Shown here: positions 6,028-44,410 of the stretch, in pieces
Layout of the letters: each line of letters begins with the position of its first letter
Numbering within the stretch: position 1 is the first letter of the stretch
Virus record (IMG/VR): IMGVR_UViG_3300018063_000021
Location: 1-44,805 of that record
From: a virus
Strand: one strand, 5' to 3'
Length of the DNA stretch: 44,805 nucleotides
Program-made: the position numbers and the translations under genes
Notes under the pieces: generated by a model
Seen by the model: the letters and a program-made list of their open reading frames with translations, nothing else
Told to the model about the DNA's origin: nothing
The model's database searches: none

Positions 6028-6031
6028 ACCA

Positions 6032-18436: not shown

Positions 18437-18441
18437 CGACA

Positions 18442-18486
18442 ATGGATACAAGGGATGGAACTATCTACGAGAAACCGACACGATGA
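18442..18486 (+). CDS. Possible 14-codon leader peptide coupled to GNAT gene
   Basis: MDTRDGTIYEKPTR with AAGGAG about nine bases before its ATG. Its stop overlaps the start of the acetyltransferase (ATGA at 18483). The acetyltransferase has no ribosome binding site of its own, so translation of this short frame may deliver ribosomes to it. Too short to prove by sequence alone. Confidence 0.35.
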   Translation: MDTRDGTIYEKPTR

Positions 18487-18932
18487 TCAGACTCGCGATG
18501 GAGGACGACCTCGACCGGCTCGTCGAACTGACGCGACACTTCCTCGCCAGCAGTGTCTACGGCGCGTTGTTCCCGTTCAACCCCGTGGCGGTCGAGGGCC
18601 TCATCCTGACGGTGCTCCACGTCGGCGCGATCTTCGTCGCGGAGGTCGACGGGCGTGTCGAGGGGATGCTCGCCGTGGCGGTGTTGAGGCACCAGGTTTC
18701 TGGTGAGTTGATTGCTGAAGAGATCGCGTGGTGGGTTGAGCCGGGCCACCGGCACAGGACGCTCGGCCCCCGCCTGTTGGGGTGTCTGGAAGATTGGGCA
18801 GTGCGACAACGGGCAATTATGGTAAAAATGGTGTCGCCAACCGGGGACACCGACCTGGAGGCGTTCTATCGGCGCCTGGGGTACGTGGCGGTGGAGACCG
18901 CGTTCGTGAAGCGCCTGCACAAAGTGAGCTGA
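18483..18932 (+). CDS. GNAT family N-acetyltransferase
   Basis: A 149-residue protein with the GNAT fold: MIRLAMEDDLDRLVELTRHF at the N-terminus, then IFVAEVDGRVEGMLAV (strands 2-4), EEIAWWVEPGHRHRTLGPRL (acetyl-CoA loop, a variant of the Q/RxxGxG/A pattern) and FYRRLGYVAVE (the end strand). Comparable acetyltransferases lie between terminase and portal or core genes in other podoviruses; the target is unknown. I chose the ATG at 18483; the same frame is open to 18423 but that part overlaps the leader peptide. Confidence 0.8.
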   Translation: MIRLAMEDDLDRLVELTRHFLASSVYGALFPFNPVAVEGLILTVLHVGAIFVAEVDGRVEGMLAVAVLRHQVSGELIAEEIAWWVEPGHRHRTLGPRLLGCLEDWAVRQRAIMVKMVSPTGDTDLEAFYRRLGYVAVETAFVKRLHKVS

Positions 18933-28000: not shown

Positions 28001-28680
28001 CGAACACGTCCACGAACATCGGGGGGCTCCTCGGGGGGCAGGTCTGCGAAGTCTACACGCGCAAGCTCGTGAACATCGCCCTGTCGCGGATCGGGATCTC
28101 GCGCGTCGTGGCCAACGTGGCCACCGAGCTGAGCGAGGAAGCCGCGACGGCCCGGCGGCACATCAAAGAGGACATCAACGCGGTCCTCCGCGATTTCCCC
28201 TGGCCCTTCGCGACCGCCTACGCCAACCTCGTGCTCGTGGGGGGCACGGCCGCCGTGCCGGTCAACAACGACTGGCAATACAGCTACCGCGCGCCGAACG
28301 CCATGATGTTCGCGCGCCGGATCGCCACGGTCGAGGCCGGCCGGGCGCATCACCCCACCCCGATCCCCTTCCGCGACGGGCTCGACGCGACCGGCCCGGT
28401 CATCTTTACGAACGAGGTCGCGACGGCGACGGTCCCGCTCGTGCTGGAATACACCGTGCGGGTGAGTTGCCCGGCGTTCTTCGGTAACGCGCTCTTCCGC
28501 GATGCGCTCGCCTGGCGGTTCGCGGCGTCCCTGGCGGCGGCGCTGTCACGCGACAAGGACCGAGCGCAATTCTGTCTGGCGATGTATGGGAACGTGCTGA
28601 AGGATGCCGAGGTCGCGGACATGAACGAGCAGCAGCAGGAGCCTGAAGGCGAGGCCGATTGGATCACGGGGCGCGACTGA
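25012..28680 (+). CDS. Adhesin-like protein fused to a tail adaptor (tail tubular protein A)
   Basis: A continuous 1222-residue frame. Residues about 193-366 look like a LamG/concanavalin-type sandwich (ATGQFAFFRVNSSANKTLL, LDTWARLDIIHSAVGN). Residues 376-421 match a small carbohydrate-binding module (AWNAGTGYVGGEIVRW, TYKAREAS, KWMRLS). After a proline linker (about 597-610), residues 629-943 contain three related beta-rich units, two ending in TGVTY-Y--F. From residue 1013 (EVYTRKLVNIALSRIGISRV) to the end it matches the podovirus tail adaptor, T7 gp11-like: helices with EEAATARRHIKEDINAVLRD, then FPWPFATAYANL. Adaptors are normally about 200 residues, so here a receptor-binding array may be built into the adaptor ring. 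The next gene is the nozzle protein, as expected. Confidence 0.75.
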   Translation: MAKTQILDYYIHVRDKTYAEQLTAFLRAGDTDAWPNGVGGLLFVPRADGPDTVNFPIVGVKGEWCIRRAPYTAGPPEGGAAVEFAINDGAYPPAYPLVEVGEAIPATGAGYLSSPWFTNSNDFPRNAATFTRSTGWWLFGSSTKFYWAGHVVYDPPAAGAGTEGSEPTEPAPIRPRRWIDGIETPESGEGATDTLNDFSRVASRSVEGFGVAWRDNSATVQVRTHTLSPDADRHWDRVYLRAVLAFPDAAVSIYRSTGSVVAGSGLLIEVTATGQFAFFRVNSSANKTLLTTAGQLVLDTWARLDIIHSAVGNVFTMDVYLKGVLLVAGLTAPDPGLVRTVTLGRASITGISASSVRLDVDDWIGGLPPYVLDPLLIAWNAGTGYVGGEIVRWTNGGTYKAREASTNLPPVTNPTKWMRLSHATDWLNGSHVALIRPTAFNASHSGWTGDVRHLTQRAAQSTTLGLTSTTALAMVSVDTDAVAQLDNYPGAIGWVGFNVAGFISAGGAPDGKLGYKVGAAAAVLTTVVQAAGMEWRNVLYVDPAPNGDIAQPYKNLAIELRHEKANDATAAVAAILHGCVELVGVFGAEDVVPAVPPVVPSAPPPPTFRGYHTAPYPRSPWGAGQLPFGPVVIKGGTYAGNNLGQDLIFAAAPIWIWIRPLTSDTGGVKWWSSMLAAHISMDQSVNISGLMDATQDFAFVQGSPSADQQMQFLVRIASVHGQVNATGVTYQYIAFCDPAARFSRAGVFALGQNQGPQTVPLDAAAFTPELVFLFKEDLGTTTTDTLILKGPGHATDAVSLMTTGTPVTNALDIGAGSLVARAGLLTAQFADYPYVAFRRADGNNAVGQAGVMAMGSYVGDGAASRTISLAPASGLRPMWAVVQPHNAIAIQRDPSHTTVNSSTLAGTNQTTGITAGSIDGFTVGITLNATGVTYTYFVFPGSATAGNGGWSINAESVPVGSDSSRPADWGEPVEQDAVVTPVVLVDEPDLDQASVLSNTSTNIGGLLGGQVCEVYTRKLVNIALSRIGISRVVANVATELSEEAATARRHIKEDINAVLRDFPWPFATAYANLVLVGGTAAVPVNNDWQYSYRAPNAMMFARRIATVEAGRAHHPTPIPFRDGLDATGPVIFTNEVATATVPLVLEYTVRVSCPAFFGNALFRDALAWRFAASLAAALSRDKDRAQFCLAMYGNVLKDAEVADMNEQQQEPEGEADWITGRD

Positions 28681-28808: not shown

Positions 28809-31043
28809 ATGGCCGAGAGCGTGATGCAACGGAGCTTCGCCGGTGGCGAGCTGGCGCCGGCGTTCCATGCGCGCGCGGACACCGCGCGCTACCTCTCGGC
28901 CCTCAAGACGTGCAAGAACTTCGTCGTGCGCCGGGAAGGGGGCGTCGAGAATCGGGCGGGCTTTCGGTTCATCCGCGCCTGTAAAACCACCGCGGCCACG
29001 GTCATGCTGATGCCGTTCCATCTGCCGGACGGCAATGGCATGCTCATCGAGGTCGGCGTCGGGTACTTTCGCTTCTACCTGACCGGGGCGCTCGTCACCG
29101 TGACGGGGCTGTCGGCCTGGTCGGCCGTCGTCAACTACGTGCCGGGCGACCTCGTCGTGCAAGGCGGCGTGAACTACTACTGCCACACCGCGAACCTGAA
29201 TCAAGTGCCGCCCAACACGGGCTTCTGGTATGCGATGCCCGCCGGCGGGATCTATGAGATTCCCCACCCCTACGGGGGCAACGGCCTGTTCGACTACAAC
29301 CAGTCGGGCGCGGTGCTCACGCTGACGAGCGCGTTCGAGCCGTCACACGATCTCATCTTCTCGTCCACGACGCGGTGGGTCGTGCGACCCGTGACGACGA
29401 CGCCGGCGATCGCGGCGCCGTCGGGCCTCGGGGGCGTCGCCGGCGCCGCGGGGACCCTCACCTACCGCTACAAGGTCACCGCGGCGGCCGTCGAGACGTA
29501 TGAGGAGTCGAACGCCTCCACCACCGCCACCGTGGCGGCGTGCGCGGAGCCGACGCCGACGGCGCCGAACGTACTCACGTGGACCCCGGTGTCCGGCGCC
29601 GCCGAGTATTACGTCTACTGCGACCGCTACGACAACGGCACGTTCGGGTTCACCGGCACGGCGTCGGCCGCCAGCTTCAACGACACCGGGTTCGTGCCGG
29701 ACTTCAACGTCACGCCGCCGATCCCGCGCGTCTTGTTCACGACCACCAACAACTTTCCGCGCCACTCCGCCTTCCATCAGCAACGTCGGCTGTTTGCGAA
29801 CACGGTCACGGAGCCGGACGCGATCTACGGCTCGCGTGTGGGGTTCCCGTCGAACTTCGGGATCGCCTCGCCGTTGCAGGACGATGACGCGATCACGTTT
29901 CGCATCGCGGGCAACCTGTTTCACCCCGTCCGCCATCTGCTGAGTCTGAAGCAGCTCATCGTGTTCACCGGCGGCGGCGGCTGGTCGGTCGGCCAACCCG
30001 GCGAACCGTTGACACCGTCGAACCTGCCGGCGGATCAACAGCTCTACGCCGGTGCCGCCGACGTGAAGCCGGTGGTCGTCGGCAACAGCGTGATCTACGT
30101 GCAGGCGCGCCAAAGCATCATCCGCGATGCGCAGTTCTCGCAAGGGGTCGAGGGGCTGGCCGGCCGGGATCTCACGGTCTACGCCGCGCACCTGTTCGAG
30201 AACCTCACCATCCGGAAGATCGCCTATCAGGAGAACCCGCACTCCATTGTCTGGTGCGTGCGCGCGGACGGCGTCCTGCTCGGGCTGACCTACCTCCGCG
30301 AACAAGAGGTCTGGGGCTGGCATCGGCACACCACGATCCAGCAGACGCTCACGGCGCAGACGAGCGGGATCATCGAGGACGTGGTGGTCGTGCCCGAAGG
30401 GACCGAGGACGTGGTGTACCTCCTCGTCGCCCGGACCATCGGCGGCGCGACCGTGCGCTACATCGAGCGGCTCGCCAAGCGCGACGCGCGCCCGGCGTTC
30501 TTTGCGACGGACAGCTTCTTCGTGGACTCCGGGCTCACCTACGCCGGCGTGCCCGTGACGACGGTCAGCGGGCTCAGTCATCTGGACGGCCAAGTGGTCG
30601 CGGTCGTAGCGGATGGCGCGGTCGTGTTCGATGGCAACCCGGCGACGCCGGGCGCGTCGGCGTTTGTGGTCACGACCGGCGCGATCACGCTCGCGGTGGC
30701 CGCCAGCTTGATTCATGTGGGGCTGCCGATCCGGTATCCCGACGTGGAACTGCTCGACATGGACGCGGCGGGCTCCGACATCCGGGACCGGAAGAAGCGG
30801 GTCGGCAGTGTGTCGGTGCTCGTGGACCGGTCTAGCCGGTCCTTTTCGGCGGGCGAAGACGAGACGCATCTGCGACAATACACACTCGCGCCGTGGGACA
30901 CGACCGAGCGCGATCACACCGGGCAACTGGAGCTGAGCCTGACCTCCAGCGCGACGAAGCGTGGGCGCGTGCTCATCCGGCAGACCGACCCGTTGCCGTT
31001 AACGATCCTTGGGGTGATTCCGAATGTCGACGTGGGAGGGTGA
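28809..31043 (+). CDS. Tail nozzle protein (tail tubular protein B-like)
   Basis: A 744-residue protein. The N-terminus has the nozzle hallmark: SFAGGELAPAFHARADTARY, LSALKTCKNFVVRREGGVEN, RAGFRFI. Residues about 102-143 form an inserted carbohydrate-binding-like module (WSAVVNYVPGDLVVQGGVNY, FWYAM). Residues about 200-300 look like FN3-type repeats (GTLTYRYKVTAA, ASTTATVAA, AEYYVYCDRYDN). The rest includes FHQQRRLFANTVTEPDAIYG, SRVGFPSNFG and later YVQARQSIIRDAQFSQGVEG, WGWHRHTT, typical of the propeller-like body. It would form the distal tail tube, here with glycan-binding decorations. Confidence 0.85.
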   Translation: MAESVMQRSFAGGELAPAFHARADTARYLSALKTCKNFVVRREGGVENRAGFRFIRACKTTAATVMLMPFHLPDGNGMLIEVGVGYFRFYLTGALVTVTGLSAWSAVVNYVPGDLVVQGGVNYYCHTANLNQVPPNTGFWYAMPAGGIYEIPHPYGGNGLFDYNQSGAVLTLTSAFEPSHDLIFSSTTRWVVRPVTTTPAIAAPSGLGGVAGAAGTLTYRYKVTAAAVETYEESNASTTATVAACAEPTPTAPNVLTWTPVSGAAEYYVYCDRYDNGTFGFTGTASAASFNDTGFVPDFNVTPPIPRVLFTTTNNFPRHSAFHQQRRLFANTVTEPDAIYGSRVGFPSNFGIASPLQDDDAITFRIAGNLFHPVRHLLSLKQLIVFTGGGGWSVGQPGEPLTPSNLPADQQLYAGAADVKPVVVGNSVIYVQARQSIIRDAQFSQGVEGLAGRDLTVYAAHLFENLTIRKIAYQENPHSIVWCVRADGVLLGLTYLREQEVWGWHRHTTIQQTLTAQTSGIIEDVVVVPEGTEDVVYLLVARTIGGATVRYIERLAKRDARPAFFATDSFFVDSGLTYAGVPVTTVSGLSHLDGQVVAVVADGAVVFDGNPATPGASAFVVTTGAITLAVAASLIHVGLPIRYPDVELLDMDAAGSDIRDRKKRVGSVSVLVDRSSRSFSAGEDETHLRQYTLAPWDTTERDHTGQLELSLTSSATKRGRVLIRQTDPLPLTILGVIPNVDVGG

Positions 31044-31368: not shown

Positions 31369-31397
31369 GCGATGGCTGCCTTCACGGCACTCGGCAT
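31368..31397 (+). repeat. 30-bp direct repeat, copy 2 (gene start module)
   Basis: Identical to 19235-19264. It covers the bases just before the start and the first codons of the core protein gene at 31372, so both genes begin MAAFTALGIG. Confidence 0.9.
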
Positions 31398-31947
31398 TGG
31401 GCTCCTGATCGCGGGCACGGCGACCAAAGTCGTCGGGGCCGTGCGCGCCGGGCGTGCCGCGAAGCGCGCCGGCCTCGCCGCGCAAGAAGCCGCCGAGTCA
31501 CAGGCGCAACTCTCGGACTACAACGCGGCCGTGGCGGAGCTGCAGGCGAAGGATGCCGAGGCCCGTGGCCGTGACGAGGAAGGCCGCTTTCGTCAGCGCG
31601 TGGACGGGATGATTGGCACGCAACGCGCCGGCATCGCGGCCGGGAACATCGACGTGAACTTCGGCTCAGCGGTCGACGTGCAGGCCGACGCGGCGTTCCT
31701 CGGCGAGTTGGACGCGCTGCAGATCCGGACGAACGCGGCGCGCGAAGCCTGGGGCTACAAAGTCGAGGCGGAGGACGCCCGGCAGCGGGCGGTCATTACG
31801 CGCAAAGAAGGCGTCCAGGCGGCAGCGGCGGGTCGTGAGGCGCAAGTCGCGGCGCGGTTTGGCGCTGTCGGGTCCATCATCGAGGGCGCGTCCGCCGTCG
31901 AGTCCAGGTATGGTTTCGGGCGAGGCACGAAGAGCGCGGCGGCCTGA
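31372..31947 (+). CDS. Internal core protein, T7 gp14-like ejection protein
   Basis: A 191-residue protein with a hydrophobic N-terminus (MAAFTALGIGLLIAGTATKV), a long Ala-rich helix, then GRFRQRVDGMIGTQRAGIAA, GNIDVNFGSAVDVQADAAFL, GELDALQIRTNAAREAWGYK. The segment 'QRA-iAAgNIDVn-GSavdVqad-a-LGElDaltIR-NAareAwGY' is the hallmark of podovirus internal virion proteins of gp14 type, which are ejected to form a channel across the outer membrane. Its start module is shared with the gene at 19239. Confidence 0.75.
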   Translation: MAAFTALGIGLLIAGTATKVVGAVRAGRAAKRAGLAAQEAAESQAQLSDYNAAVAELQAKDAEARGRDEEGRFRQRVDGMIGTQRAGIAAGNIDVNFGSAVDVQADAAFLGELDALQIRTNAAREAWGYKVEAEDARQRAVITRKEGVQAAAAGREAQVAARFGAVGSIIEGASAVESRYGFGRGTKSAAA

Positions 31948-33731
31948 TGCCCATCGTCCCCCGCTACGGCGAACGGCAGGTTGGACTCGCGGCGCTGCCC
32001 GGCGCGCGAAAGACGGCCGGGGAAACAGAGGCCTCCACGGGCGTCGGCGTCGAGCGTGCGAAGCAGCAGACCGGGCTCGCCATCGCCGAGTTCGGCGGGC
32101 AGATTGCGCGGATCGGGGCGGAGAACGTCGCGCGCATCGTCCACGAAGAACGCCAGCGGGCGGACGAGGTCTTCGGGCTCAACCTGGAGAATCAGCTCGA
32201 CGCCTGGGAGAATCCGCGCCTCTACGACCCGCAGACGGGCGCCCTCGCGCAGAAGGGCGAGGCCGCCAACGTCCTGCCCGAGCAAGTCAACGGCGAGTTC
32301 AAGAAGCTGACAGGCGATCTCGCTGGCACAGCGTCGAACGACCGCCAGCGGGCCATCGCCGCCAAGTTGTTCGCGAACCGGGCCGCACGGCTGGATATCA
32401 CGCTGCGGCGCCATGTCTTCACGGAGATGCAAACCTACGAGGCCGACGAAGTGAAGGCCTACGTGGCCAACCGGACCAACGCCGCCGTCGCCAACGCGAT
32501 GGACCCGGCGCGTGTCGGGGAAGAGCTGACGAAGGCCATCGAGAAGGTCCGCACGCACGGGCCACGCGCCGGGCTCAGCCCCGAGGCCGTCGAGGCCCAA
32601 GTGCGCGCCGTGAAGACCGAGACGCACGTCGGTGTGATCTACAACCTGCTCGCGCAGCAGCAGCCGAAGGCCGCCACGGTCTACTTCGAGGCGGCCACCG
32701 ATCAAATCGATGGCGACAAACTGGACGATGTCAGGACGGCGCTCACGGAGGGGACCGAGACGGTCGAGGCGCAGAAGATCGCGGACAGGATTCTGCGCGA
32801 GGGTGGGACGCTCACCGAGCAGCGGGCGAAGGCGGCGGCCTACGAAGGCGAGTTACGCGACAAGGTCGAACGGCGGCTCGAACACGACCGCACGATCGCC
32901 GATCGGGAACAGGACGAGGCGACGAAGGAGTCGATGCGCGTCGGCTACGACATCATCGACAAGACCGGCGACCCGACGAAGATCCCGCCGGCACAGTGGG
33001 CGGGGTTCGAGGGCTCGACCCGCTCGGCCATGTGGAGCTACGCCACGCAGCGCGCCGCCGGCAAACCGATCAAGACCGACTGGGCGGTCTACAACCGGCT
33101 GATGCGACAGGCGGCGGATGATCCGGACGGGTTCGCGTCCAGCAAGACCAACCTCATGGCGTACCGGCATCTGCTCGACGATGTCGAGTTCAAGCAGCTC
33201 AATGGGGTGCAGCTCTCGATCGCGAGCGGGAACCGGGACGCCGCGGAGAAGGACCTCGCGCTCTTCCGCACGAAGACGGACATTCTCGACGGCACGCTCG
33301 GGCTCTACGGGATCGACCCGAAGGCGAAGCCGGGCACGCCAGACGGCAACGCCGTCGCGCACGTGCAACGGCAACTTGACCTCGCGATTGAAGCGGCACA
33401 GGCGCCCGACGTCGCCGGGAAACGCAAGAAGCTAACGGGGAATGAAATTCAAGAAAAGCTTGATTTCATTCTCGGCCAGAGTGAAACGGTGCCTGGGTCC
33501 TTCAAGGCGATCTACCGGCCGTTTACCTACGACTGGAGCGATCAGACCAAGCGCGTCGTGGACTTCACGATTGCCGACGTACCGCCGGGGATGCGTCCAC
33601 AGATTGAAGAGGCGCTCCGCCGCGCCGGCACGCCCGTGAACGACAAGACGGTCTTGGACCTCTACATCTCGCACGACCTGCGGATCCGGCGTCTGGGTCC
33701 GTCCATCGGGCCGCGGCCGGCGGGACGCTGA
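31947..33731 (+). CDS. Internal virion/ejection protein (gp15-like)
   Basis: A 594-residue, largely helical, charged protein starting at TGATG after the gp14-like gene. It begins MPIVPRYGERQVGLAALPGA, as do many podovirus core proteins ('P-y-g-rqV--a-lPga'). Long helices with heptads follow (about residues 60-330). The middle has QDEATKESMRVGYDIIDKTG, the C-terminal part has EIQEKLDFILGQSETVPGSF. Function is inferred from position and form: second component of the ejection core, perhaps periplasmic. Confidence 0.65.
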   Translation: MPIVPRYGERQVGLAALPGARKTAGETEASTGVGVERAKQQTGLAIAEFGGQIARIGAENVARIVHEERQRADEVFGLNLENQLDAWENPRLYDPQTGALAQKGEAANVLPEQVNGEFKKLTGDLAGTASNDRQRAIAAKLFANRAARLDITLRRHVFTEMQTYEADEVKAYVANRTNAAVANAMDPARVGEELTKAIEKVRTHGPRAGLSPEAVEAQVRAVKTETHVGVIYNLLAQQQPKAATVYFEAATDQIDGDKLDDVRTALTEGTETVEAQKIADRILREGGTLTEQRAKAAAYEGELRDKVERRLEHDRTIADREQDEATKESMRVGYDIIDKTGDPTKIPPAQWAGFEGSTRSAMWSYATQRAAGKPIKTDWAVYNRLMRQAADDPDGFASSKTNLMAYRHLLDDVEFKQLNGVQLSIASGNRDAAEKDLALFRTKTDILDGTLGLYGIDPKAKPGTPDGNAVAHVQRQLDLAIEAAQAPDVAGKRKKLTGNEIQEKLDFILGQSETVPGSFKAIYRPFTYDWSDQTKRVVDFTIADVPPGMRPQIEEALRRAGTPVNDKTVLDLYISHDLRIRRLGPSIGPRPAGR

Positions 33732-36700
33732 TGTCGCCGCTCAATCAATTCGACGACGAGCTGCAACGGCTCGACGACGATCAGGCGCCGTCGGCGGACC
33801 CCAACCCGTTCTACCAGACGATCCTCGATCAGCGGTCCGCGCGGGAGAGCACACTGCGCCGGTCGATGCGGACGGCGACCGACACGACGCCTGAGCGCGC
33901 CGCGGAGGTCCGTCGGCTGTCCGACCAGCTCCGCGTGCCGGCGCCGATCATCGATCGGGACTTTGAGCGGTATCAGAAGCAGGGCGCCGTCGAGGGGCGG
34001 CCCTATGCGGCGATGCAAGATGAGACGCCGGCGCTCGCGCAGTGGACCGCGAAGCCAGAGAACGCGGCCCTCGCGCAGGATGACCTCGAACAGTTAGGGC
34101 TCCTGGAGTGGCTCGTCACGGCGCCACAACGGGCCTTCGCGCAGTCGGCCGCGCACATGCGGATGGCCGAACTTCGCACGAAAAGCCTCTTTCGGGATCT
34201 GACCCGCGAGGAGCTGGACGCCCTCAATTCGGAGAAGTTCCTCACCGAGTCCGGCGCGCGGCTGGGCGCCGGCGATTCCTGGTTCCGGGGGGCGGTCACG
34301 AGTGGATCCGCGCTCCTGGCCAACGTGCTCTTCGGCGCACAGCGCGCGGGCGCCAAAGGCGTCCTGGGAGCCGTGACGGGCGCCTTTATCGGCGGCGCCG
34401 GCGGGGCTGTGGTCGGCGGGGTGGGGGCCATTCCTGGGGCCGCGGCCGGCGCGAAGTTCGGGCTCTCGGTCGGCTTGGGCGTGGGGGCCGCCCAGTTCGG
34501 GTTCGAGTTGGAGGCCGGGCTCGCCTATGACGAGTTCCAGACCAACCCGGATTTCACCGACGATCTCGGTCGGCCGCTTGATCAGAACGTGGCGAAGGTG
34601 GCCGCGCTGGCCGCTGGCGGGTTGAACGCCGGGCTCGAAGTGGTGGGCTTGGGGATCCTCGCGAAGAGCATCCCCGGCCTCAACCAACTGAAGGGGGCGA
34701 TGGCACGGACCGCGATCGCGACGGCGCTCAAGTCTCCCACCGTGCGCGCGGCGCTCCGCGATGCCTTGGGGAGCTACGGCGGTGTCGTGACGAAGGAAAC
34801 AGCGGTCGAGGTCGCCCAGCGAGCGATTACGATTCTGTCTGGTGAGTTGGGCAAGGCGGTGTCCGGGCAACCGCTGCCGATGCGGACCCCGGACGACGTG
34901 ATGGCCGACCTGGGGCGCGAGGCGGTAGGCGCCGCTCAGGGCTTCGCGTTCGTCGGCCTACCCGGCCCTACCCTCAGCCTCGCGCACGATGTCCAGCGGG
35001 CACGCCAAGCCCAGCACAATGCCACCTGGTTCACGGCCCTCGGGGAAGGGGTGAGCCAGTCAAAGACCGTCACGCGGATGCCGGCAGCGGCGCAAGAGTT
35101 GCTGGAGCAGGCGACCAAAGACGGGCCGATTGGCACGCTCTATGCCCCACTGGATACCTGGACGACGTACTGGCAGGAGAAGGGGATCGACCCGGCCGAG
35201 ATGGCCGCCACGGTCACCGGGGACCGTGCGGCGCTGGCCACGGCCAGGGAGACGGGCGTCGACCTCGCCATCCCCACGGCCCGCTACGCGGTCACGCTGG
35301 CGGGGACCGAGCACAACGGCTTCTTCGGCGGGGAGTTGCGCTTGGGGCCGGAGGAGATGAACGCGCGGGAGGCGACCGCGTTCATCGAGGAGCAGCGCAC
35401 GAAGCAGGAAGCCGAGGCGGGCTTGCCAGCGGCCGAACCGTCCAGCCGAGAGCAGGTCCGGCGGGCGGTGTCCGCGCAGCTCGTCACGGGCGGGCAATTC
35501 ACGGCGGCGACCGCTGAGCCGATCTCGCAACTCCTAGCGGCTGGCATCGGCACGCTGGCCGAAGAGGCCGGGCTCGATCCCGCGGCGCTGTATAGCCGAT
35601 ACGGGTTGACGGTCGCGCGGCCTACCGCCGCCGAGGCGGCACGTGTCACGCCGGGCGCACCGAGCGAGCCGAGCGGGGGGGCCGCGCCGCCCGCCGCACC
35701 CGCGGCGCCCGTCCCGCCGGCGGGATCGGACCTCGTGGTGCCGGGCGAGACGGCCGAGGCGATCCCGGGGTTGGCGGAGCTGGAAGCCGAGCTGGGCGGC
35801 GCGACGCTCGAACCGCGGGGAGAGGAGACGTTCACCGCGAACGTCAGCGAGACGGGCCTGGGGTCCGAGGAAGAGAACCGTCGCCTCGCGGCCATGACGG
35901 CCGCCGGCCAAACCTTTGTCGTCTACGACCGCGCCGGTCGTCGTCGAGTGATTCCGACGGGCGGCGCCGTGGACTACCACGCGCAGAACGGCGAGACCTT
36001 CGGCGTGGAGAGTCGGACCGGGTTCGAGATCCACGAGCACCGGGGCGGCAAAGTGCCTGGCTTGACGGCGCCGGCGGCCGAAGCGCAGACTGGAGTCGCC
36101 GATGCCGAACCCGAGGGTGACCGTCTTGACCTCCGTGCGACAGGGGATGACCCCGCGGTTGGCCTTTTTGAGAGCCGGCCGAGCGTCGCTGAAAATGAGG
36201 TGGCCCGACTCGTCCGTCGGCGCACCGGCGAGTCCGATACAGCCCTCGCCTCCCGCCGCCGCCGCTACGTCGTCGAGGCCCACGCCGTCCGCCGCACGCA
36301 GCACTACGGGGCGCTCTTCGCGCACGTCGCGCACCACGCCGCGCAACTCCAGCCAGACGTAGACCGCGCACTCTTGCAACGCGAGTTCGCGATCCGGATT
36401 GACCTCTGGGAAGAGGCCGCGAGCACCTACACCGAGAGCGGCCACGATCCGCTCGATCTCTTGAAGGCCATCGCCGACCGTGGCGGGCTCAACACAGCCG
36501 ACCCGTCGTTCCCTGGTGAAGTGGCGCTCCTGATGGAGGGGCAGACCTTCGGGCGCGTGCGCGGGGTGAAGGGCGTCTTCCAGAAGGACAGCCGGCAGAC
36601 GCTCGACCTGTTGGCCACGTCACTCCGGCAAGACGATCGCTACGCCTGGATCACGACGCCGGACGTGCTCACCGAGGCGATCGACGACGCGATCCGGCAC

Positions 36701-39700
36701 CCGGCGCTCTACACGGAAGGCGTCTATCCCGGGTCCGATCAACTCGCCGTCATGGGCATGGACCCGACAACCGAATGGTGGGCCGATTCCTGGTTGGGTC
36801 CCGTCGAAGGCGAGGAGATCAGCTTCGATGTGTCTACCTTCGAGCAAGGGCTGTTCGATCTGTTCGGGGAGCCCGCGCCGGCGCCGGCGGCCCAGCCCAC
36901 ATTGGAGGAGCTGAAGGCCCGTAACGCCGAGCGCCGTGCTCAAGTCGAACAGGAGATCGTCGAGGCGGGCGCGACGCCGGCCGGCGTGCGGCTGATCGCG
37001 CCCTCCGGGCGGGCACTCGTTGTCCATCCGAGCACACAGGAGGCCGGGCGCTGGCAGCTCACGGCCTTCACCGACGAGGGCACGCCCTCCGGGCATGATC
37101 TCTACGACAGCTTCGCCGAGGCGTATCGGAGCGCGCGAGGCCTCTACGGCACGCAGACCTACGGGCCACCCTTCGGCGGCAGTGAGTTTGTCCCGATCAC
37201 GCAGGGCGCGACAGCCGCGCCGGCACTCGATGCGTTCTACCCGGTCGTCTCGGACGTGGTGGACGGGCTCGTCGTGCGGGCCGAGGTGCCGAACACCGAC
37301 TCCATCAGCGCGTCGCTCTCCACCTACCGCGTCCTGCCGGGCATCCGGGCGGTCCCGTTCGGTCCGACCCCCCCGCCCACCTTCATCAATCCCCAGACGC
37401 AACAGCGCACCGAGGCGCTCCGCGATGCCATCGCGGCCTCGGGCGAGGTCAACCCGCTGATCGTCGTGATCGAGCCCGGCAACCCGGACCCGGACTACTA
37501 CTACATCCTCGAAGGGAGCCATCGGTTCGATGCGCTCCTGATGCTCGGCAAGACCGCCTTCCCGGCACTCGTCGTGATCGACGAAGACAGCCTCCCGGCC
37601 GAGGATGTGCTCGACACCGGGGAAGTGCAGCCGCGACTCCCCGCCGCCGGCGCCGTGCGCGATCAGGAGGTCGCGACGCCGGCCATCGAGGCGCCGTTCG
37701 CGTTGACGGCCACCGAGGACCGGGCGACGAAGGGGACGCAAACGGAACTGTTTCAGCCGGTCTACCACGGCTCGCCCTACATCTTCGAGAAGTTCTCGCT
37801 GCATAGCATCGGCAATGGGGAAGGGCACCAAGCGTTCGGCTACGGCCTCTACTTCGCCAGTCTGCGGGACGTGGCCGAGGGCTACCGGGAGCGCTTGGCC
37901 GGCAAAGGCCTGGACAAGCGACTGGTGATCGACGGCGTCAGCGTGATCGGGGAGGAGGACAGTGTCTACGGCACGCTCAACCACACCACGACTGAGGGCG
38001 GGCAACTCGGACGTGGGCTCCTGGAGCTGTTCGCGCGCGCGCACTTCAAACGGCCGGGGAAGGCGAGCATCGCCGCGCTCCGGGACGAACTGACGCGCTC
38101 CATCGCCAACTACGAGGTCGTGTTCGCAGAGGGGCGCACCTTTAGCGGCGACCTCAATCGGGACCTGTTTCATTTCGCCGCGGCCCGCGCCGCGCTCGCC
38201 GCCCTGGAGAAGTGGGGCGACCGGATGGAGATCCTCCCGGCGGAGAAGCCGGGGCGCACCTACAAGGTGGAGATTCCCGACGACGCGCACTTCCTCGATT
38301 GGGACAAGCCGATCGCTGAGCAGCCGTCGATTGTGAAGACCGCGCTGGTGCAGCTCGGCTTCACCATCGACGCCGCACTCACCATCCCGGATTGGGCGCA
38401 CGCGGAGCAACTCTTCGGTGTCGGCGGCTCCGGCCTGCAAGCCATGCTGATCGCGGAGCGGATGGCGGCCAACATCGAGACGCGGGAGATCCTGAACGCC
38501 GGCCGGTACTACGTCGAGACGCGCAACGCGGAGGCGTGGGCGGAGTGGTATCGGGAGCACAGCGCGCTCCTCGATCGGAAGCTCCAGTCCGCGCAAGCCT
38601 TCGTGTGGCGTGGCGAGGACATCTACCGCGAATTGCATCGGCGGGCGGCCACGGTCGGCGGGCGCCCACCCAGCGGCGGCTGGTCACTCAATCAGGAGTT
38701 TGCCAAAGTGGCCTCGGCACAGCTTGCCGCCCACGGCGTCGCGGGGCTCCGGTATTTCGATGGTCTGTCCCGCTCGGTGCAGGAGGGCACGGCCAACTAC
38801 GTCGTCTTCGACGACCGACTGATCGAGGTCGTGGAGTTCTATCAGGACAGCCCACGGCTGACGGCCATCCATCAGCTCACGGCGGAGAACCTCGCCTCGG
38901 CCGAGGCGCTCGGCGCGCTCGCCGTGCCGTCCATTGCCGTGCAGCCGGAAGGGAGCGGCGCCCTCCACGGCTTCGGCGAGATCACCCTGTTGGGCGGGCG
39001 GGATCTGGCGGACCCGGCGCAGCATCCCGTCTTCGACGCGGACGCCTGGAGCATGACGTTCCCGGCGCCCGAGTATCGCAAGGCCAAGATGAAGCCCACG
39101 CAGGCGCTCGTCAACACGTTCCGCAGGGACAGCGTGGCCTACGAGGAAGATGGCAAACTCAGTGAAGTGTGGGACCACGCGGTGAGCCGGCCGAGGCCGG
39201 AGGAGTCCATTCAGATCCTCCGGCGCTCGCTGATGGCGAAGGCGGTGTTCCTGCGGGAGCAGGGCGTCACGCCGGCGCCGCCCGTGCTGGTGCCTAAGGA
39301 GCTAGAGGCGGGGTGGGTGACCGCGCCGAGTTTCCAAGCGTTCTTGGCCGCCTCGGGTGGCGCTGAGCAGCTCGGGCGCTACGGCGTCGCGGACACGGCC
39401 TATCGGCAGCAGCTCACGGCCGCGGTGCGGGCGGCGCTCGTCGAGCACACGGCGGCGATCACGGCAGACGCGGAGGCGGCGACGCGCGAGTTGATTGCCT
39501 CCTTGGAGGACGAATGGTTCAACACAGACGGCGACGGCCTCTTCGCCTTCGGGCGCACGCCGCGCGTCCTCCGGAGTCTGGACGCCATCGGCAAGGTCCG
39601 GATGGATGTGGGGGCGACGCAAGCGGCGCTCGACGCGCAGATGGTCGGGCGGACGCCAGCGTTTCAGGCGTGGGTCGATCGCCAGATTCTCGGGCTCCAT

Positions 39701-42700
39701 CCGGCGCCGGAGATTACGCTCCGCCGACGCAAGGTGCCCTATACGTTGGAGAACATCGTCGAGCGCATGACGGCCACGGTGTCCATCAACGCGCAGCAGC
39801 AGCACATGACCTTCGGCGAGGGCAAGGCCCGGGCCGCGGCGGCGCGACGCTTCAGCTCCGTCGAACACATGCGGAATGTCGCGGCTTACGCCATCAAGCC
39901 GGAAAGCGAGGTCAACGAGGCACGCGCGCGCGCGCAGCAACTCCTCGCGGACTGGCGCGGCGAAGTGCTCGGTTCCTACACCGAGACGGACTGGCGCGGG
40001 CAGATCGATACCTGGCACGGACTTGATGCGTCGATGCGGGCGGTCGCCCGGTGGGCGAAGTCGATGCGGGACACGCCGGAGACGCGGATGCGGAAGGCGC
40101 TCTCGGCGGAGGGGTTCTCGCACGTGCCGGCGTCGGTCGTGGCGCAAGGCGTCGAAGCCGCCCGGGCGTTCATGGACGCCCCGGTGCCGTACTTCGAGAG
40201 CAAACCCCAACGGGCCGTGCAGCTCACGGAGTTTGCGGGCGCGGTCGTGCCAGCCACTGCCACGCCGGCGACGCGCGCCATCCTGGCGAAAGCCGGGCTG
40301 TCGGTCATGGACTACGACCCCGGCAACACGGCGAGCCGGGATGCCGCCATCAACGCGCTCCGGACCGATCTCGCCGCCACGCGGCCGGAGATCCTCTTCC
40401 AGCCGACGCTCGGCGGGAAGCGCGGCTCGATTGTGATCGGGCCGAACCGGACCATCACCATCAACCTCTTCGAGAAGGCCGACCTCTCCACCGTCCTGCA
40501 CGAGACCGGGCACTTCTTCTTAGAGGTCTTTGGGGACGTGGTAGACGGGCTCGGCCTGAAGGACCCGGCACAACTCACCCCCTCACAGCGGCGGATGCTT
40601 GGAGACTACGGTGCGATCTTGCAACTCTTCGGCGTGGAGAACCGGCGGGAGATCGGGCGTGCGCAACACGAACAGTGGGCGCGCTTGTTCGAGGTGTATC
40701 TCGCCGAAGGTCGCGCCCCGAGCGAGGCGCTCCGGTCCGCGTTCGGGCGGTTTCGTGCGTGGTTCCTGGGGATCTACCGCGCGTTGCGGAACATGGACGC
40801 GACGCTCACGCCAGAGGTGCGGGCCATCTTTGACCGGATGCTCGCCAGCGAGCAGGCCATCACGGAGGCGGAGGCGCGCGGGCGCATGGAGCCGCTGTTC
40901 CTGACGGCCGAGGCGGCCGGCATGACCCCGGCGCGGTTTGGCCTCTACCGGTCCACGATTGAGGCCGCGTCGCGCACGGCGCGGGAAGAGTTGGACGGGA
41001 AACTCCTGGCCGAGATTCGCCGGGAACAAGAGGGCCAGTGGCGGGCCGAGCGTGACGAGGTGCGTGCGGAAGTCGCGAGCACCGTGCAGCAGCAGCCCGT
41101 CTACAAGGCGCTGGCCGCCATGCGCGCCGGCAAGAATCCTGACGGCACGCCGCTCGTGGAGGGGCTGATCACGCCGCCCTTGAAGCTCTCCAGGCGGCTG
41201 ATCGTGGACCGGTTCGGGATCGACCGGCTCCGCGCGCTCCCGAAGCCCTATGTCTACAGTGCCGAGGGCGGCCTCGATCCGGAGACGGTGGCGCAGCGAT
41301 TCGGGTTCGGCAGTGGCGACGAGCTGTTGACGGCGATCACCGAGGCGCCGGCGATGGGGCAGGCGATCGACCGGGAGACGGATCGACTCATGATCGACCG
41401 TCACGGCTCGCTGTTGCTCGACGGCTCTGTGACGGAGGCCGCGCAGGCCGCCACGGCGAACGCAGACCGGGCGCTGGTCATCCGCACAGAGCTGCGGGCG
41501 CTTGGGCAGCTCCGGCGGAGCGTGGCGCCGTTCGAGGACGCGGTGCGGGCGGAAGGCGCCGAGAAGCTCCGCGACGCGGGCAAGGAGCGCGCGTACGAGC
41601 GGCGGTGGCTGGAGGCCGAGACGCGGCTCCGGATCGCCATCGCGGAGGGGCGCAAGCAAGTTGAGATCGATGCCTTGCGTGGGGAGTTGGCCAACCTCAA
41701 GGGGAAGGCGCGCAGTGGTGGGGCGACGCTCCGCGGCGCGCTCCCGCCGGCGGACGCCATCCGGCAGATTGGCGAGGCGCGTATCGCCGCGACGCGCTAC
41801 CGTGACCTGAAGCCGGCCGTGTTCTGGTCGGCCGCCCGGCGGGCCTCACAGGCGGCGACCGAGGCCGCTGCGCGGCAAGACTTCGACGCGGCGATTCAGG
41901 CCAAGACGCAGGAGTTGCTCCACCTCGCCCTCTACCGGGAGGCTGAGACCACGCTGGCCGAGATCGAGTCGCGCATCACGCAGGCGCGGGATCTCAACCG
42001 CCCGGCCACGCAGGCGCGCCTCGGCCTCGCGGGCGGCACGTTCCTCGATCAGATCCTCGGTATCCTGGACCGCTACGACTTCGCGCGTGTGTCCGGGCCG
42101 GCGCTGGAGCGGCGCGCGCAGATCACGAAGTGGGTCGCGGCGATGGAAGGGGAGGGGCTCCCGGTCGATCTGCCGGACGAAGTCCTGAACGACGCCAGAC
42201 GCATCAATTATCAGGACGTGACGGTGGCCGAACTGATCGGCATCACGGACGGCATCGCGCAGATTCTCCATCTCGCGCGGCTGGCCAGCCGCCTCCTCAA
42301 GGGCGACCAGAAGGCGGAACTGGACGCCGCCGCCACGGAGATGGCCACGTCGATCCGCGCGCAGGGCAGACGTCGGCGCGAGCCGCGGCGCGATCGCCCG
42401 CCTGGGGAAGAACGGCGGCGCGCTGTCGAGGACTGGTTCGCCGGGCACCGGAAGCTCGCGTCCCTCGTGCGGGTCTTGGACGGGTTCCAGGATGGCGGAC
42501 CCGTGTGGGACGCGTTCCTGCGTCCACTTAATGACGCCGGGGCACGGGAAGCCGAGATGAACGCCGAGGCCACGGCGCGGTTCGCCGCGCTCATCGAGCG
42601 CGCGTATCCGGGGCGGTCGAAGCGGTTGCTCTACGAGCGCCAGCATGTCCCGGCGGTCGGCCGGAGTCTGTCGCAGATGGAGCGCCTGATGGTGGCGCTC

Positions 42701-44410
42701 AATTGGGGGAACGATGGGAACCGGGATCGGATTCAGCGTGGCGAGGGGTGGAGTACGGAACAGGTGCAGAGCATCCTGGACACGCTGACGCCGGCGGACG
42801 CGGACTTCGTGCAGGGCGTCTTCGATCTCCTGGACTCCTATTGGCCGGCGATCAAAGCGAAGCAGGAGCGCGTCTACGGGCTGGCGCCGGCGCGTGTGGA
42901 GGCGGCCACCTTCCGGCTCGGCACGCGCGAGATGACGGGCGGCTACTTCCCATTGAAGTATGACGACCGCTTGAGCGCCACGGCCATCAGCAAGCTCGAC
43001 CTCGATGCGGCGAATCTCGCGCGGTACGCGGCCTACGCGCACGCGACGACGAAGCGGAACCATACGCAGGCCCGCGTAGCGACGCTGAAGGAGAAGGTGC
43101 GCCTGGACTTCGGGCCGATGTTCGAGCACGTTGATCAGGTGATTCACGACCTCACGCATCATGAGGCGCTGCTCGACATCGGGCGCCTGATCGGCCACAA
43201 AGCCGTGCAGGACGCGATTCTGGAGACGCAGGGCGACCTCGTGTATAAGCAGATCCGGAACACCATCCGCGACGTGGCCTTCGGGGACGTGCCGGCGCGT
43301 GGCGGTGTCGAGCGGTTCATCAATCACATTCGCGCCGGCGCGACGATTGCCGGCCTCGGCTGGAACCTCACCACGGCCATGCTTCAGCCGATTGGCCTGA
43401 CGAACAGTGCCGTGCGGATTGGGCCGAGGTGGGTCCTGCGCGGGCTCGCGCGCTGGTTCCGGCATCCGACCACGATGATCGAGACGGTGGACTGGATCAT
43501 GGAGCAGAGCGCGTTCATGCGCTCGCGTGGCCGCACACAGCAGCGGGAGATCGCCGAGATCCGCCGGCGGATCGGGGTCGATACCGGGGTGATTACCGGG
43601 TGGGTCGAAGCCTCCATCCGTGGCGCGTCCGGTGGCACCGTGTCGGCGCAAGGCGTCGCGGACTCCTACTTCTGGATGATCCAAGCGATGCAACGCATGG
43701 CCGACGTGCCGACGTGGCTCGGGGCCTACGAGAAGGCCATGGCGGACCCGCGCAATCTGGACGCGAACGGCCTGCACGATGAGGCGAGGGCCGTCGCGCT
43801 CGCCGATCAAGCGGTCCTCGATTCACAGGGCGGGGGCCAGATGAAGGATCTGTCGGAAGTGCAACGCGGCGGGCCGATGATGCGGCTCTGGACGAACTTC
43901 TACTCGTTCTTCAACGTGCTCTACAACCAAGCGGCGGAGAGCACGCAGCGGACGCGGTTCACCGAGCCGGCCGATGTCGGACGGTTGGCCTCGGACTACC
44001 TGATGCTCTTCATCGTGCCGGCGGTCATCAGCTACATGGTGCGCGCCGCGCTCCGGCCTGGGGAGGAGGACGACGAAGACGCGCTCGCGTGGCGGCTGGC
44101 GCTGGAAGTCGCGTCCTACATGAGCGGCACGATGATCGGCCTCCGGGAGATCAGCGCGACGTTGCAGGGGTATTACGGCTACGACGGGCCGGCCGGCGCG
44201 CGATTCTTCGCCGCGTTGTCCCGCCTCGGGCAACAAGCGCGGCAGGGGGAACCGGACGCGGCGTTCCGACGCGCCGCCGTCGATGTCGGGGGCACGGTGC
44301 TCCATCTCCCGGCCGGCCAGATCAACAAGACCCTGGACGGCATCATGGCGCTCGACGAAGGGAAGACGCAGAACCCGGCGGCCGTGGTGCTCGGTGGGCC
44401 GAGGCGCTGA
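33731..44410 (+). CDS. Giant polyvalent internal virion protein (ParB-like, ADP-ribosyltransferase-like and HETGH metalloprotease-like domains)
   Basis: A 3559-residue continuous frame, 24% of the window, coupled by TGATG. Residues 1-180 are helical. About 190-265 is a Gly/Ala-rich hydrophobic segment (GAFIGGAGGAVVGGVGAIPG). A Pro/Ala/Glu-rich linker lies near 640-800. Residues about 1195-1290 look ParB-like (YYILEGSHRFDALLMLGKTA). About 1340-1700 resembles polyvalent-protein ADP-ribosyltransferases (VYHGSPYIFEKF, GYGLYFASLRDVAEGY, then ANYVVFDD). Residues 2250-2270 hold HETGHFFLEVFG, a zincin-type metal site at 2257-2261. The last 900 residues are helical, with a membrane-like segment at 3423-3441 (YLMLFIVPAVISYMVRAAL). 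I see no transglycosylase domain. Large polyvalent proteins are thought to be injected with DNA to disarm the host. Confidence 0.8.
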   Translation: MSPLNQFDDELQRLDDDQAPSADPNPFYQTILDQRSARESTLRRSMRTATDTTPERAAEVRRLSDQLRVPAPIIDRDFERYQKQGAVEGRPYAAMQDETPALAQWTAKPENAALAQDDLEQLGLLEWLVTAPQRAFAQSAAHMRMAELRTKSLFRDLTREELDALNSEKFLTESGARLGAGDSWFRGAVTSGSALLANVLFGAQRAGAKGVLGAVTGAFIGGAGGAVVGGVGAIPGAAAGAKFGLSVGLGVGAAQFGFELEAGLAYDEFQTNPDFTDDLGRPLDQNVAKVAALAAGGLNAGLEVVGLGILAKSIPGLNQLKGAMARTAIATALKSPTVRAALRDALGSYGGVVTKETAVEVAQRAITILSGELGKAVSGQPLPMRTPDDVMADLGREAVGAAQGFAFVGLPGPTLSLAHDVQRARQAQHNATWFTALGEGVSQSKTVTRMPAAAQELLEQATKDGPIGTLYAPLDTWTTYWQEKGIDPAEMAATVTGDRAALATARETGVDLAIPTARYAVTLAGTEHNGFFGGELRLGPEEMNAREATAFIEEQRTKQEAEAGLPAAEPSSREQVRRAVSAQLVTGGQFTAATAEPISQLLAAGIGTLAEEAGLDPAALYSRYGLTVARPTAAEAARVTPGAPSEPSGGAAPPAAPAAPVPPAGSDLVVPGETAEAIPGLAELEAELGGATLEPRGEETFTANVSETGLGSEEENRRLAAMTAAGQTFVVYDRAGRRRVIPTGGAVDYHAQNGETFGVESRTGFEIHEHRGGKVPGLTAPAAEAQTGVADAEPEGDRLDLRATGDDPAVGLFESRPSVAENEVARLVRRRTGESDTALASRRRRYVVEAHAVRRTQHYGALFAHVAHHAAQLQPDVDRALLQREFAIRIDLWEEAASTYTESGHDPLDLLKAIADRGGLNTADPSFPGEVALLMEGQTFGRVRGVKGVFQKDSRQTLDLLATSLRQDDRYAWITTPDVLTEAIDDAIRHPALYTEGVYPGSDQLAVMGMDPTTEWWADSWLGPVEGEEISFDVSTFEQGLFDLFGEPAPAPAAQPTLEELKARNAERRAQVEQEIVEAGATPAGVRLIAPSGRALVVHPSTQEAGRWQLTAFTDEGTPSGHDLYDSFAEAYRSARGLYGTQTYGPPFGGSEFVPITQGATAAPALDAFYPVVSDVVDGLVVRAEVPNTDSISASLSTYRVLPGIRAVPFGPTPPPTFINPQTQQRTEALRDAIAASGEVNPLIVVIEPGNPDPDYYYILEGSHRFDALLMLGKTAFPALVVIDEDSLPAEDVLDTGEVQPRLPAAGAVRDQEVATPAIEAPFALTATEDRATKGTQTELFQPVYHGSPYIFEKFSLHSIGNGEGHQAFGYGLYFASLRDVAEGYRERLAGKGLDKRLVIDGVSVIGEEDSVYGTLNHTTTEGGQLGRGLLELFARAHFKRPGKASIAALRDELTRSIANYEVVFAEGRTFSGDLNRDLFHFAAARAALAALEKWGDRMEILPAEKPGRTYKVEIPDDAHFLDWDKPIAEQPSIVKTALVQLGFTIDAALTIPDWAHAEQLFGVGGSGLQAMLIAERMAANIETREILNAGRYYVETRNAEAWAEWYREHSALLDRKLQSAQAFVWRGEDIYRELHRRAATVGGRPPSGGWSLNQEFAKVASAQLAAHGVAGLRYFDGLSRSVQEGTANYVVFDDRLIEVVEFYQDSPRLTAIHQLTAENLASAEALGALAVPSIAVQPEGSGALHGFGEITLLGGRDLADPAQHPVFDADAWSMTFPAPEYRKAKMKPTQALVNTFRRDSVAYEEDGKLSEVWDHAVSRPRPEESIQILRRSLMAKAVFLREQGVTPAPPVLVPKELEAGWVTAPSFQAFLAASGGAEQLGRYGVADTAYRQQLTAAVRAALVEHTAAITADAEAATRELIASLEDEWFNTDGDGLFAFGRTPRVLRSLDAIGKVRMDVGATQAALDAQMVGRTPAFQAWVDRQILGLHPAPEITLRRRKVPYTLENIVERMTATVSINAQQQHMTFGEGKARAAAARRFSSVEHMRNVAAYAIKPESEVNEARARAQQLLADWRGEVLGSYTETDWRGQIDTWHGLDASMRAVARWAKSMRDTPETRMRKALSAEGFSHVPASVVAQGVEAARAFMDAPVPYFESKPQRAVQLTEFAGAVVPATATPATRAILAKAGLSVMDYDPGNTASRDAAINALRTDLAATRPEILFQPTLGGKRGSIVIGPNRTITINLFEKADLSTVLHETGHFFLEVFGDVVDGLGLKDPAQLTPSQRRMLGDYGAILQLFGVENRREIGRAQHEQWARLFEVYLAEGRAPSEALRSAFGRFRAWFLGIYRALRNMDATLTPEVRAIFDRMLASEQAITEAEARGRMEPLFLTAEAAGMTPARFGLYRSTIEAASRTAREELDGKLLAEIRREQEGQWRAERDEVRAEVASTVQQQPVYKALAAMRAGKNPDGTPLVEGLITPPLKLSRRLIVDRFGIDRLRALPKPYVYSAEGGLDPETVAQRFGFGSGDELLTAITEAPAMGQAIDRETDRLMIDRHGSLLLDGSVTEAAQAATANADRALVIRTELRALGQLRRSVAPFEDAVRAEGAEKLRDAGKERAYERRWLEAETRLRIAIAEGRKQVEIDALRGELANLKGKARSGGATLRGALPPADAIRQIGEARIAATRYRDLKPAVFWSAARRASQAATEAAARQDFDAAIQAKTQELLHLALYREAETTLAEIESRITQARDLNRPATQARLGLAGGTFLDQILGILDRYDFARVSGPALERRAQITKWVAAMEGEGLPVDLPDEVLNDARRINYQDVTVAELIGITDGIAQILHLARLASRLLKGDQKAELDAAATEMATSIRAQGRRRREPRRDRPPGEERRRAVEDWFAGHRKLASLVRVLDGFQDGGPVWDAFLRPLNDAGAREAEMNAEATARFAALIERAYPGRSKRLLYERQHVPAVGRSLSQMERLMVALNWGNDGNRDRIQRGEGWSTEQVQSILDTLTPADADFVQGVFDLLDSYWPAIKAKQERVYGLAPARVEAATFRLGTREMTGGYFPLKYDDRLSATAISKLDLDAANLARYAAYAHATTKRNHTQARVATLKEKVRLDFGPMFEHVDQVIHDLTHHEALLDIGRLIGHKAVQDAILETQGDLVYKQIRNTIRDVAFGDVPARGGVERFINHIRAGATIAGLGWNLTTAMLQPIGLTNSAVRIGPRWVLRGLARWFRHPTTMIETVDWIMEQSAFMRSRGRTQQREIAEIRRRIGVDTGVITGWVEASIRGASGGTVSAQGVADSYFWMIQAMQRMADVPTWLGAYEKAMADPRNLDANGLHDEARAVALADQAVLDSQGGGQMKDLSEVQRGGPMMRLWTNFYSFFNVLYNQAAESTQRTRFTEPADVGRLASDYLMLFIVPAVISYMVRAALRPGEEDDEDALAWRLALEVASYMSGTMIGLREISATLQGYYGYDGPAGARFFAALSRLGQQARQGEPDAAFRRAAVDVGGTVLHLPAGQINKTLDGIMALDEGKTQNPAAVVLGGPRR

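What the first reader, a model, noticed from the sequence alone, without database searches (positions are those of the whole stretch)
33731..44410. 3559-residue injected multi-effector protein
One gene uses 24% of the window. Between ends that look like podovirus core proteins it carries ParB-like, ADP-ribosyltransferase-like and HETGH metalloprotease-like domains, plus long unassigned helical regions. It follows the gp14- and gp15-like genes directly, in the position of T7 gp16. The simplest reading is an ejected core protein that brings enzymes for modifying host proteins, cutting DNA and degrading a defence or repair factor at the moment of entry. The 800-residue stretches on either side of the protease may hide new domains.
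Basis: partly seen in the sequence, partly recalled or inferred. Interest (0 to 1): 0.65.

Follow-up and report, generated by a model that had tools for sequence, protein, structure and literature searches.

The report
Phage polyvalent ejection protein with cargo
This giant phage gene encodes a known type of virion-linked "polyvalent" protein: a conserved scaffold with a built-in protease that carries swappable enzymes into the bacterium, and its modules are separated by a short, strongly conserved sequence that looks like a cutting or recognition site and was not mentioned in the papers available here.

Summary
The 3559-codon ORF at 33731-44410 is real and intact. It is a polyvalent protein (Iyer et al. 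2017) of the Bordetella phage BPP-1 Bbp10 / PHROG_9880 family. It sits directly after nozzle, gp14-like and gp15-like genes.

Comparison with about 95 phage relatives and 80 genome-contig relatives separates a constant scaffold from swappable cargo. The scaffold is aa 1-640 plus aa 2225-3559.

The HETGH metalloprotease is not cargo. It starts the conserved C-terminal core and was intact in every relative examined, including 21 found without using that motif. Self-processing is therefore likelier than attack on a host factor.

One observation not found in the literature read: cargo borders carry a hydrophobic-x-Gln motif, often LFQ. It precedes the protease in 72/81 viral and 65/67 independent genome relatives (random windows about 21 and 17). 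Other residues tested in place of Gln are not enriched, and LFQ uses 20 of 24 possible codon combinations. I infer a processing or recognition site. Cleavage, ejection and enzyme activity were not tested.

The parts
33731..44410 (+). Whole polyvalent-protein gene, 3559 aa, 385.9 kDa
33857..34135 (+). LPD22 (aa 43-135), part of the constant N-terminal scaffold
   Evidence: Pfam PF18834 E=5e-17; also in most relatives scanned
34352..34483 (+). Gly-rich hydrophobic hairpin (aa 208-251), possible membrane-inserting segment
   Evidence: hydropathy; inference
34961..35641 (+). Constant block N2 (aa 411-637)
   Evidence: found in 71 of ~96 relatives in single-sequence search, 83 of 95 with profile
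35648..36850 (+). Unassigned region X (aa 640-1040), variable, shared with ~9 close relatives only
   Evidence: no Pfam match
36860..37600 (+). ParB/sulfiredoxin-like cassette (aa ~1044-1290), GSHR at aa 1262-1265 (37514-37525); insertion in a linker, unique to this phage among 95 relatives
   Evidence: PHROG_1033 E=2e-4; alignment to L004 and L025 shows a clean insertion
37748..37756 (+). Border motif 1: LFQ (aa 1340-1342) before the ART
37757..38830 (+). ADP-ribosyltransferase of ART-PolyVal / Tox-ART-HYD2 type (aa 1343-1700): H1346, Y1374, D1694/D1695; long insertion between the motifs
   Evidence: PF18760 E=3e-4 on slice, 21.8 bits; residues conserved in relatives; coordinates
38837..38845 (+). 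Border motif 2: FYQ (aa 1703-1705) before PBECR5; Gln invariant in 8/8
38855..39310 (+). PBECR5 predicted RNase (aa 1709-1860); invariant H1714, S1734, T1752
   Evidence: PF18814 E=2e-17, 64 bits; alignment A3; model pLDDT 80
39311..40393 (+). Partner region Y (aa 1861-2221), co-occurs with PBECR5 in the same relatives
   Evidence: no Pfam match
40394..40402 (+). Border motif 3: LFQ (aa 2222-2224) between cargo and protease/core
40418..40930 (+). Zincin-like metallopeptidase (aa 2230-2400): HETGH 2257-2261 (40499-40513), third ligand E2314 (40670-40672)
   Evidence: 67/67 invariant; 16/16; Bbp10 homologue published as zincin
40931..44407 (+). Constant all-helical C-terminal core (aa 2401-3559), PHROG_9880
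   Evidence: AF2 model of aa 2226-3425 pLDDT 85.8, pTM 0.69; no PDB fold match E<=1e-3
31372..31947 (+). gp14-like internal virion protein, 191 aa
   Evidence: phrog_418 E=9e-25
31947..33731 (+). gp15-like protein, 594 aa; matches the two ends of 'endolysin' PHROGs, no lysozyme domain found by Pfam
28809..31043 (+). Tail nozzle (T7 gp12 position), homologous to Carin-1 nozzle 8ck1

Best explanation
The gene encodes a phage-type polyvalent ejection protein. A constant scaffold (N-terminal LPD22/N2 block plus a C-terminal metallopeptidase/helical core) is packaged with the gp14/gp15-like core proteins and leaves the virion ahead of or with the DNA. Enzyme modules are carried as cargo between the two scaffold parts: a ParB/Srx-like domain, an ADP-ribosyltransferase and a PBECR5 RNase module. 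The metallopeptidase is part of the scaffold and most likely processes the polypeptide itself. Borders marked by hydrophobic-x-Gln (LFQ at 1340, FYQ at 1703, LFQ at 2222) are its best candidate recognition sites; they would release pieces of about 142, 40, 56 and 148 kDa, and the freed enzymes would act on host protein, RNA and DNA or nucleotides early in infection. Shown here: architecture, conservation, scaffold/cargo distinction, motif enrichment. Inferred: virion location, ejection, cleavage, enzyme activities and targets.
For: Gene order and virion gene families, the same in relatives including BPP-1 and Carin-1. Constant blocks in 64-96 of ~96 relatives versus 9-15 for cargo blocks; cargo length 14-2338 aa while the protease-to-end length is 1235 +/- 97. 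Relative L004, 62% identical in the core, lacks ART and PBECR5. Other relatives carry PBECR1, GNAT or different ARTs there. Protease residues H, E, H, E invariant 67/67 and kept in 21/21 relatives found without the HE pattern. Motif: [LFYM]xQ 72/81 vs 20.7 +/- 3.8, replicated 65/67 vs 16.9 +/- 3.6 in genome contigs. PBECR5-Y module has an invariant Gln just before it and an invariant LFQ at its end, 8/8, although the next domain differs. LFQ written with 20 of 24 codon combinations. Published: polyvalent proteins are predicted to be injected and MPTases to process them (PMC5512222).
Against: No virion proteomics for this protein or its relatives could be read. Pro follows Gln at two of the three window sites, which argues against a cut exactly after Gln; zincins usually favour a hydrophobic residue after the cut, so the cut could lie within or near the motif or the motif may only be bound. 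N4 vRNAP, another polyvalent protein with an MPTase, is packaged unprocessed (PMC5512222). The ParB match is weak. The PDB fold search found no zincin match for the core model.
Confidence: 0.72

Rival explanations
1. The metallopeptidase is itself an effector that cuts a host defence or repair protein on entry.
For: Iyer et al. allow that some polyvalent MPTases target host proteins.
Against: It is in the constant core, not in the swappable part, and intact in all relatives across many host phyla, unlike cargo that is gained and lost.
Confidence: 0.15
2. The hydrophobic-x-Gln motif is not a cleavage site but a docking strand, flexible-linker feature or recombination hinge between modules.
For: Pro after Gln at two window sites; the motif travels with the tail of each cargo family; modules are exchanged at these points.
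Against: 20 of 24 codon combinations argue against a DNA-level hinge; strict preference for Gln over E, D, N, K, R, S, A is more than a generic linker needs.
Confidence: 0.4
3. A lysin or cell-wall enzyme, as several database entries name the relatives (lysin, lysis protein, crystallin motif).
For: Annotation only.
Against: No peptidoglycan hydrolase domain found by Pfam in the protein; the lysozyme annotation in relatives belongs to the preceding gp15-like gene.
Confidence: 0.04
4. A purely structural ejection-channel protein whose cargo domains are decayed passengers.
For: Relatives with almost no cargo exist (14 aa between blocks), so the scaffold works alone; ART score below the curated cut-off.
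Against: ART H-Y-D and PBECR5 H and S/T are conserved across diverged relatives.
Confidence: 0.1

Closest known systems
Bordetella phage BPP-1 Bbp10 (2052 aa; PHROG_9880)
   Same: LPD22, N2 block, HExxH protease and C-terminal core (34.6% identity over aa 2228-3555); same gene order
   Different: Cargo is a single PBECR1 RNase of ~100 aa instead of ParB, ART and PBECR5
Cobetia phage Carin-1 gp32 (2854 aa)
   Same: Closest isolated-phage match; shares N block, PBECR5+Y and core; follows nozzle, gp34, gp33 lysozyme
   Different: No ParB or ART found; has LFQ and other cargo after Y
Polyvalent proteins of phages (Iyer et al. 2017, PMC5512222)
   Same: Several unrelated enzyme domains in one virion-linked polypeptide with LPD and MPTase domains
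   Different: That paper's main text does not contain LFQ or Bordetella in the term search; the border motif and the scaffold/cargo split of this family are not described in the parts read
T7 gp16 (internal core / ejection protein)
   Same: Gene position after gp14- and gp15-like genes; large helical protein
   Different: No sequence or PDB fold match found; no N-terminal lytic transglycosylase domain found
CLCA_X zincin family (PMC3650047)
   Same: Bbp10 residues 700-1000, homologous to the protease region here, were a seed of that family
   Different: That work concerns the protease domain only

Membership tests
Phage polyvalent proteins | Two or more domains with disparate activities in one polypeptide | tested here: met
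   PBECR5 over cut-off, ART and ParB weaker, metallopeptidase
Phage polyvalent proteins | Contains a named large-polyvalent-protein domain | tested here: met
   LPD22 62 bits, cut-off 28.6
Phage polyvalent proteins | Encoded among virion structural genes | tested here: met
Phage polyvalent proteins | Packaged and injected | not testable with these tools
   needs virion proteomics and translocation assay
PHROG_9880 / Bbp10 scaffold family | Both ends match the family profile | tested here: met
   aa 5-634 E=4e-42; aa 2647-3550 within a 1214-bit whole-protein match
Zincin metallopeptidase (polyvalent MPTase / CLCA_X) | HExxH plus downstream Glu ligand, conserved | tested here: met
   H2257 E2258 H2261 E2314 67/67
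Zincin metallopeptidase (polyvalent MPTase / CLCA_X) | Zincin fold | tested here: inconclusive
   Model has strands then HExxH helix and Glu helix but no PDB match; no Pfam hit in the region
ART-PolyVal (PF18760) | Score over curated cut-off | tested here: not met
   21.8 vs 31.2 bits; profile split by a ~220-aa insertion
ART-PolyVal (PF18760) | H-Y-D active-site motifs | tested here: met
PBECR5 (PF18814) | Score over curated cut-off and conserved His and Ser/Thr | tested here: met
   64.4 bits vs 25; 8/8
ParB/sulfiredoxin superfamily | Profile match with active-site Arg (GxHR) | tested here: inconclusive
   GSHR present; PHROG E=2e-4, Pfam E=0.06 below cut-off
T7 gp16 homologue | Sequence or fold homology to gp16 | tested here: inconclusive
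   none found, but methods are weak for long helical proteins
T7 gp16 homologue | N-terminal lytic transglycosylase | tested here: not met
   no such Pfam domain

The most novel reading that the evidence does not exclude
Members of this phage protein family are polyproteins: the scaffold's metallopeptidase cuts at hydrophobic-x-Gln (LFQ-like) sites that flank interchangeable cargo modules, so any module ending in the motif can be loaded, ejected and freed in the host. The motif is a signature for finding module borders and unknown effectors.
Probability: 0.4. Interest if true: 0.7.

Novelty: new member of a known kind. Interest (0 to 1): 0.48.

Why it matters
Polyvalent proteins were predicted to be cut into working pieces by their own metallopeptidases; P1 DdrB is known to be processed, but the sites were not given in the paper read. 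A short border motif present in about 93% of 148 dereplicated relatives gives a concrete, cheap test. If right, it explains how phages can swap early-acting enzymes freely, and it gives a way to cut out unknown modules from giant phage proteins for assay.

Tried and rejected
DNA-level search for near relatives among isolated phages: no match. Sequence search of solved structures with the whole protein and the protease alignment: only chance-level or weak sulfiredoxin matches. PDB fold search of the PBECR5+Y and core models: nothing at E<=1e-3, so neither a known fold for Y nor T7 gp16 likeness is shown. A first motif count was contaminated by a Gln inside the protease's own strand and was redone with the window ending at the RG. 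The VFQ at aa 949 was rejected as a border because relatives have VFR there. A ParB family in relatives was rejected: their apparent ParB match is only the linker DVLxTGExQPRLPG. Phage tblastn with the ParB cassette: no match. Papers sought but not held: BPP-1 genome/virion paper, Bcep22 paper, Carin-1 cryo-EM paper, phiRIO-1 internal virion protein paper.

Full report
Observation. The reading frame 33731-44410 is a single intact ORF of 3559 codons in a 44,805-bp virus record. Upstream lie terminase, portal, major head protein, a protein with a gp11-like C-terminus, a nozzle (homologous to the solved Carin-1 nozzle 8ck1), a gp14-like internal virion protein and a gp15-like protein.

What the protein contains. 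Pfam gives LPD22 (aa 43-135), a partial ART-PolyVal match (aa 1343-1387) and PBECR5 (aa 1709-1849). PHROGs gives phrog_9880 at both ends (aa 5-634 and 2647-3550) and ParB-like families around aa 1222-1286. HETGH is at aa 2257-2261. PBECR5, the best-supported enzyme, was not in the finding.

Relatives. tblastn found the C-terminal half in 42 phage records, among them Bordetella BPP-1 (Bbp10), Cobetia Carin-1 gp32, Caulobacter SR18, Xanthomonas CP2 and Pseudomonas AF. Gene order is the same: tail nozzle, small internal proteins, lysozyme-type protein, giant protein, then usually a tail spike or fibre. A profile of the protease region found at least 567 relatives in IMG/VR (80 kept) and 89 in GTDB genomes (80 kept).

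Scaffold versus cargo. In about 96 proteins, blocks N1, N2, protease, C1 and C2 were found in 64, 71, 96, 95 and 95, whereas region X, ART, PBECR5 and Y were found in 9, 15, 11 and 11; the 12 'ParB' matches are linker only except for the window. The distance from the protease to the C-terminus is 1235 +/- 97 aa, while the cargo between N2 and the protease ranges from 14 to 2338 aa. Relative L004, about 62% identical in the core, lacks the ART and PBECR5 modules. Other relatives carry PBECR1 (BPP-1), ART (SR18, DC33, ctEw122, ctQRb9) or GNAT plus PBECR5 (Ab9). The ParB/sulfiredoxin cassette here is a clean insertion of about 245 aa into a linker that is continuous in L004 and L025. PBECR5 and the following region Y occur in the same relatives.

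Active sites. Protease H2257, E2258, H2261 and E2314 are invariant in 67 aligned relatives. Among relatives retrieved without the HE pattern, 19 of 19 viral and 2 of 2 genomic ones keep HExxH. The ART H and D motifs are kept and Y in all but one of those aligned. PBECR5 H1714, S1734 and T1752 are invariant in eight.

Border motif. Each of the last cargo modules in the window is bounded by hydrophobic-x-Gln: LFQ before the ART (1340), FYQ before PBECR5 (1703), LFQ before the protease (2222). In 81 dereplicated viral relatives, [LFYM]xQ occurs within 30 aa before the protease's first strand in 72, against 20.7 +/- 3.8 in random windows of the same proteins. Strict LFQ occurs in 25 against 0.8 +/- 0.9. 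Replacing Gln by E, D, N, K, R, S or A in the pattern gives no enrichment. An independent set of 67 genome-contig relatives gives 65 against 16.9 +/- 3.6; there strict LFQ is rarer (3 of 67), so the general form is hydrophobic-x-Gln. Across 120 LFQ/FFQ/LYQ sites the upstream and downstream sequences fall into many unrelated clusters; the downstream ones are led by the protease (40), an FYSxL domain (14) and the ART (11), though one cluster of 7 is inside N2 rather than at a border. The 81 LFQ sites use 20 of 24 possible codon combinations, so selection is on protein, not DNA. In the PBECR5-Y alignment a Gln just before the module and the closing LFQ are invariant in 8/8, although the next domain differs. 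No statement of such a motif was found in the papers I could read; the term LFQ is absent from PMC5512222. The library is incomplete, so I cannot claim it is unpublished.

Mechanism. I infer: packaging with the core, ejection, self-processing by the resident metallopeptidase with the border motifs as recognition sites, and release of the ART, RNase and ParB-like activities. Self-processing by such MPTases was already proposed, and phage P1 DdrB is processed before packaging, while N4 vRNAP is not (PMC5512222). Against a cut exactly after Gln: Pro follows at two of three window sites. The motif could instead be a docking strand.

Structure. AlphaFold2 with relatives gives a confident all-helical core (aa 2226-3425, pLDDT 85.8, pTM 0.69) and a moderate PBECR5-Y model (pLDDT 79.7). 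Neither has a PDB match at E<=1e-3. T7 gp16 homology therefore rests on gene position only; that internal virion proteins of many podoviruses are homologous and can host cytoplasm-destined domains is from memory of Hardies et al. 2016, which was not held.

Verdict. A new, cargo-rich member of a known kind; the ordinary part is well supported, and the border motif is the part worth testing.

Noticed in passing
25012-28680 (+): A 1222-aa protein whose last ~200 aa match the T7 gp11-like tail protein family (phrog_394, aa 1019-1221); the first ~1000 aa look like a lectin/fibre-type extension with a weak CBM_5_12 match. Relatives appear to have a short gp11-like gene, so this may be a fusion of adaptor and receptor-binding parts.
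   Followed up: partly
15538-16491 (+): Terminase small subunit family protein with two matched stretches; the N-terminal domain seems duplicated in tandem. A second, weaker TerS-like match lies at 5975-7042.
   Followed up: no
31947-33731 (+): The gp15-like protein matches the two ends of 'endolysin' PHROGs but skips the middle, where relatives probably carry the lysozyme domain; no virion peptidoglycan hydrolase was found in this phage with the domains scanned.
   Followed up: partly
18423-18932 (+): A stand-alone GNAT acetyltransferase gene between terminase large subunit and portal.
   Followed up: no
39311-40393 (+): Region Y, without any Pfam match, co-occurs with PBECR5 in all relatives that have it; it may be a partner, inhibitor or targeting part of the RNase.
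   Followed up: partly
aa 1289-1315 (about 37595-37675): Linker DVLxTGExQPRLPG is strongly conserved in about a dozen close relatives although it has no domain match.
   Followed up: no
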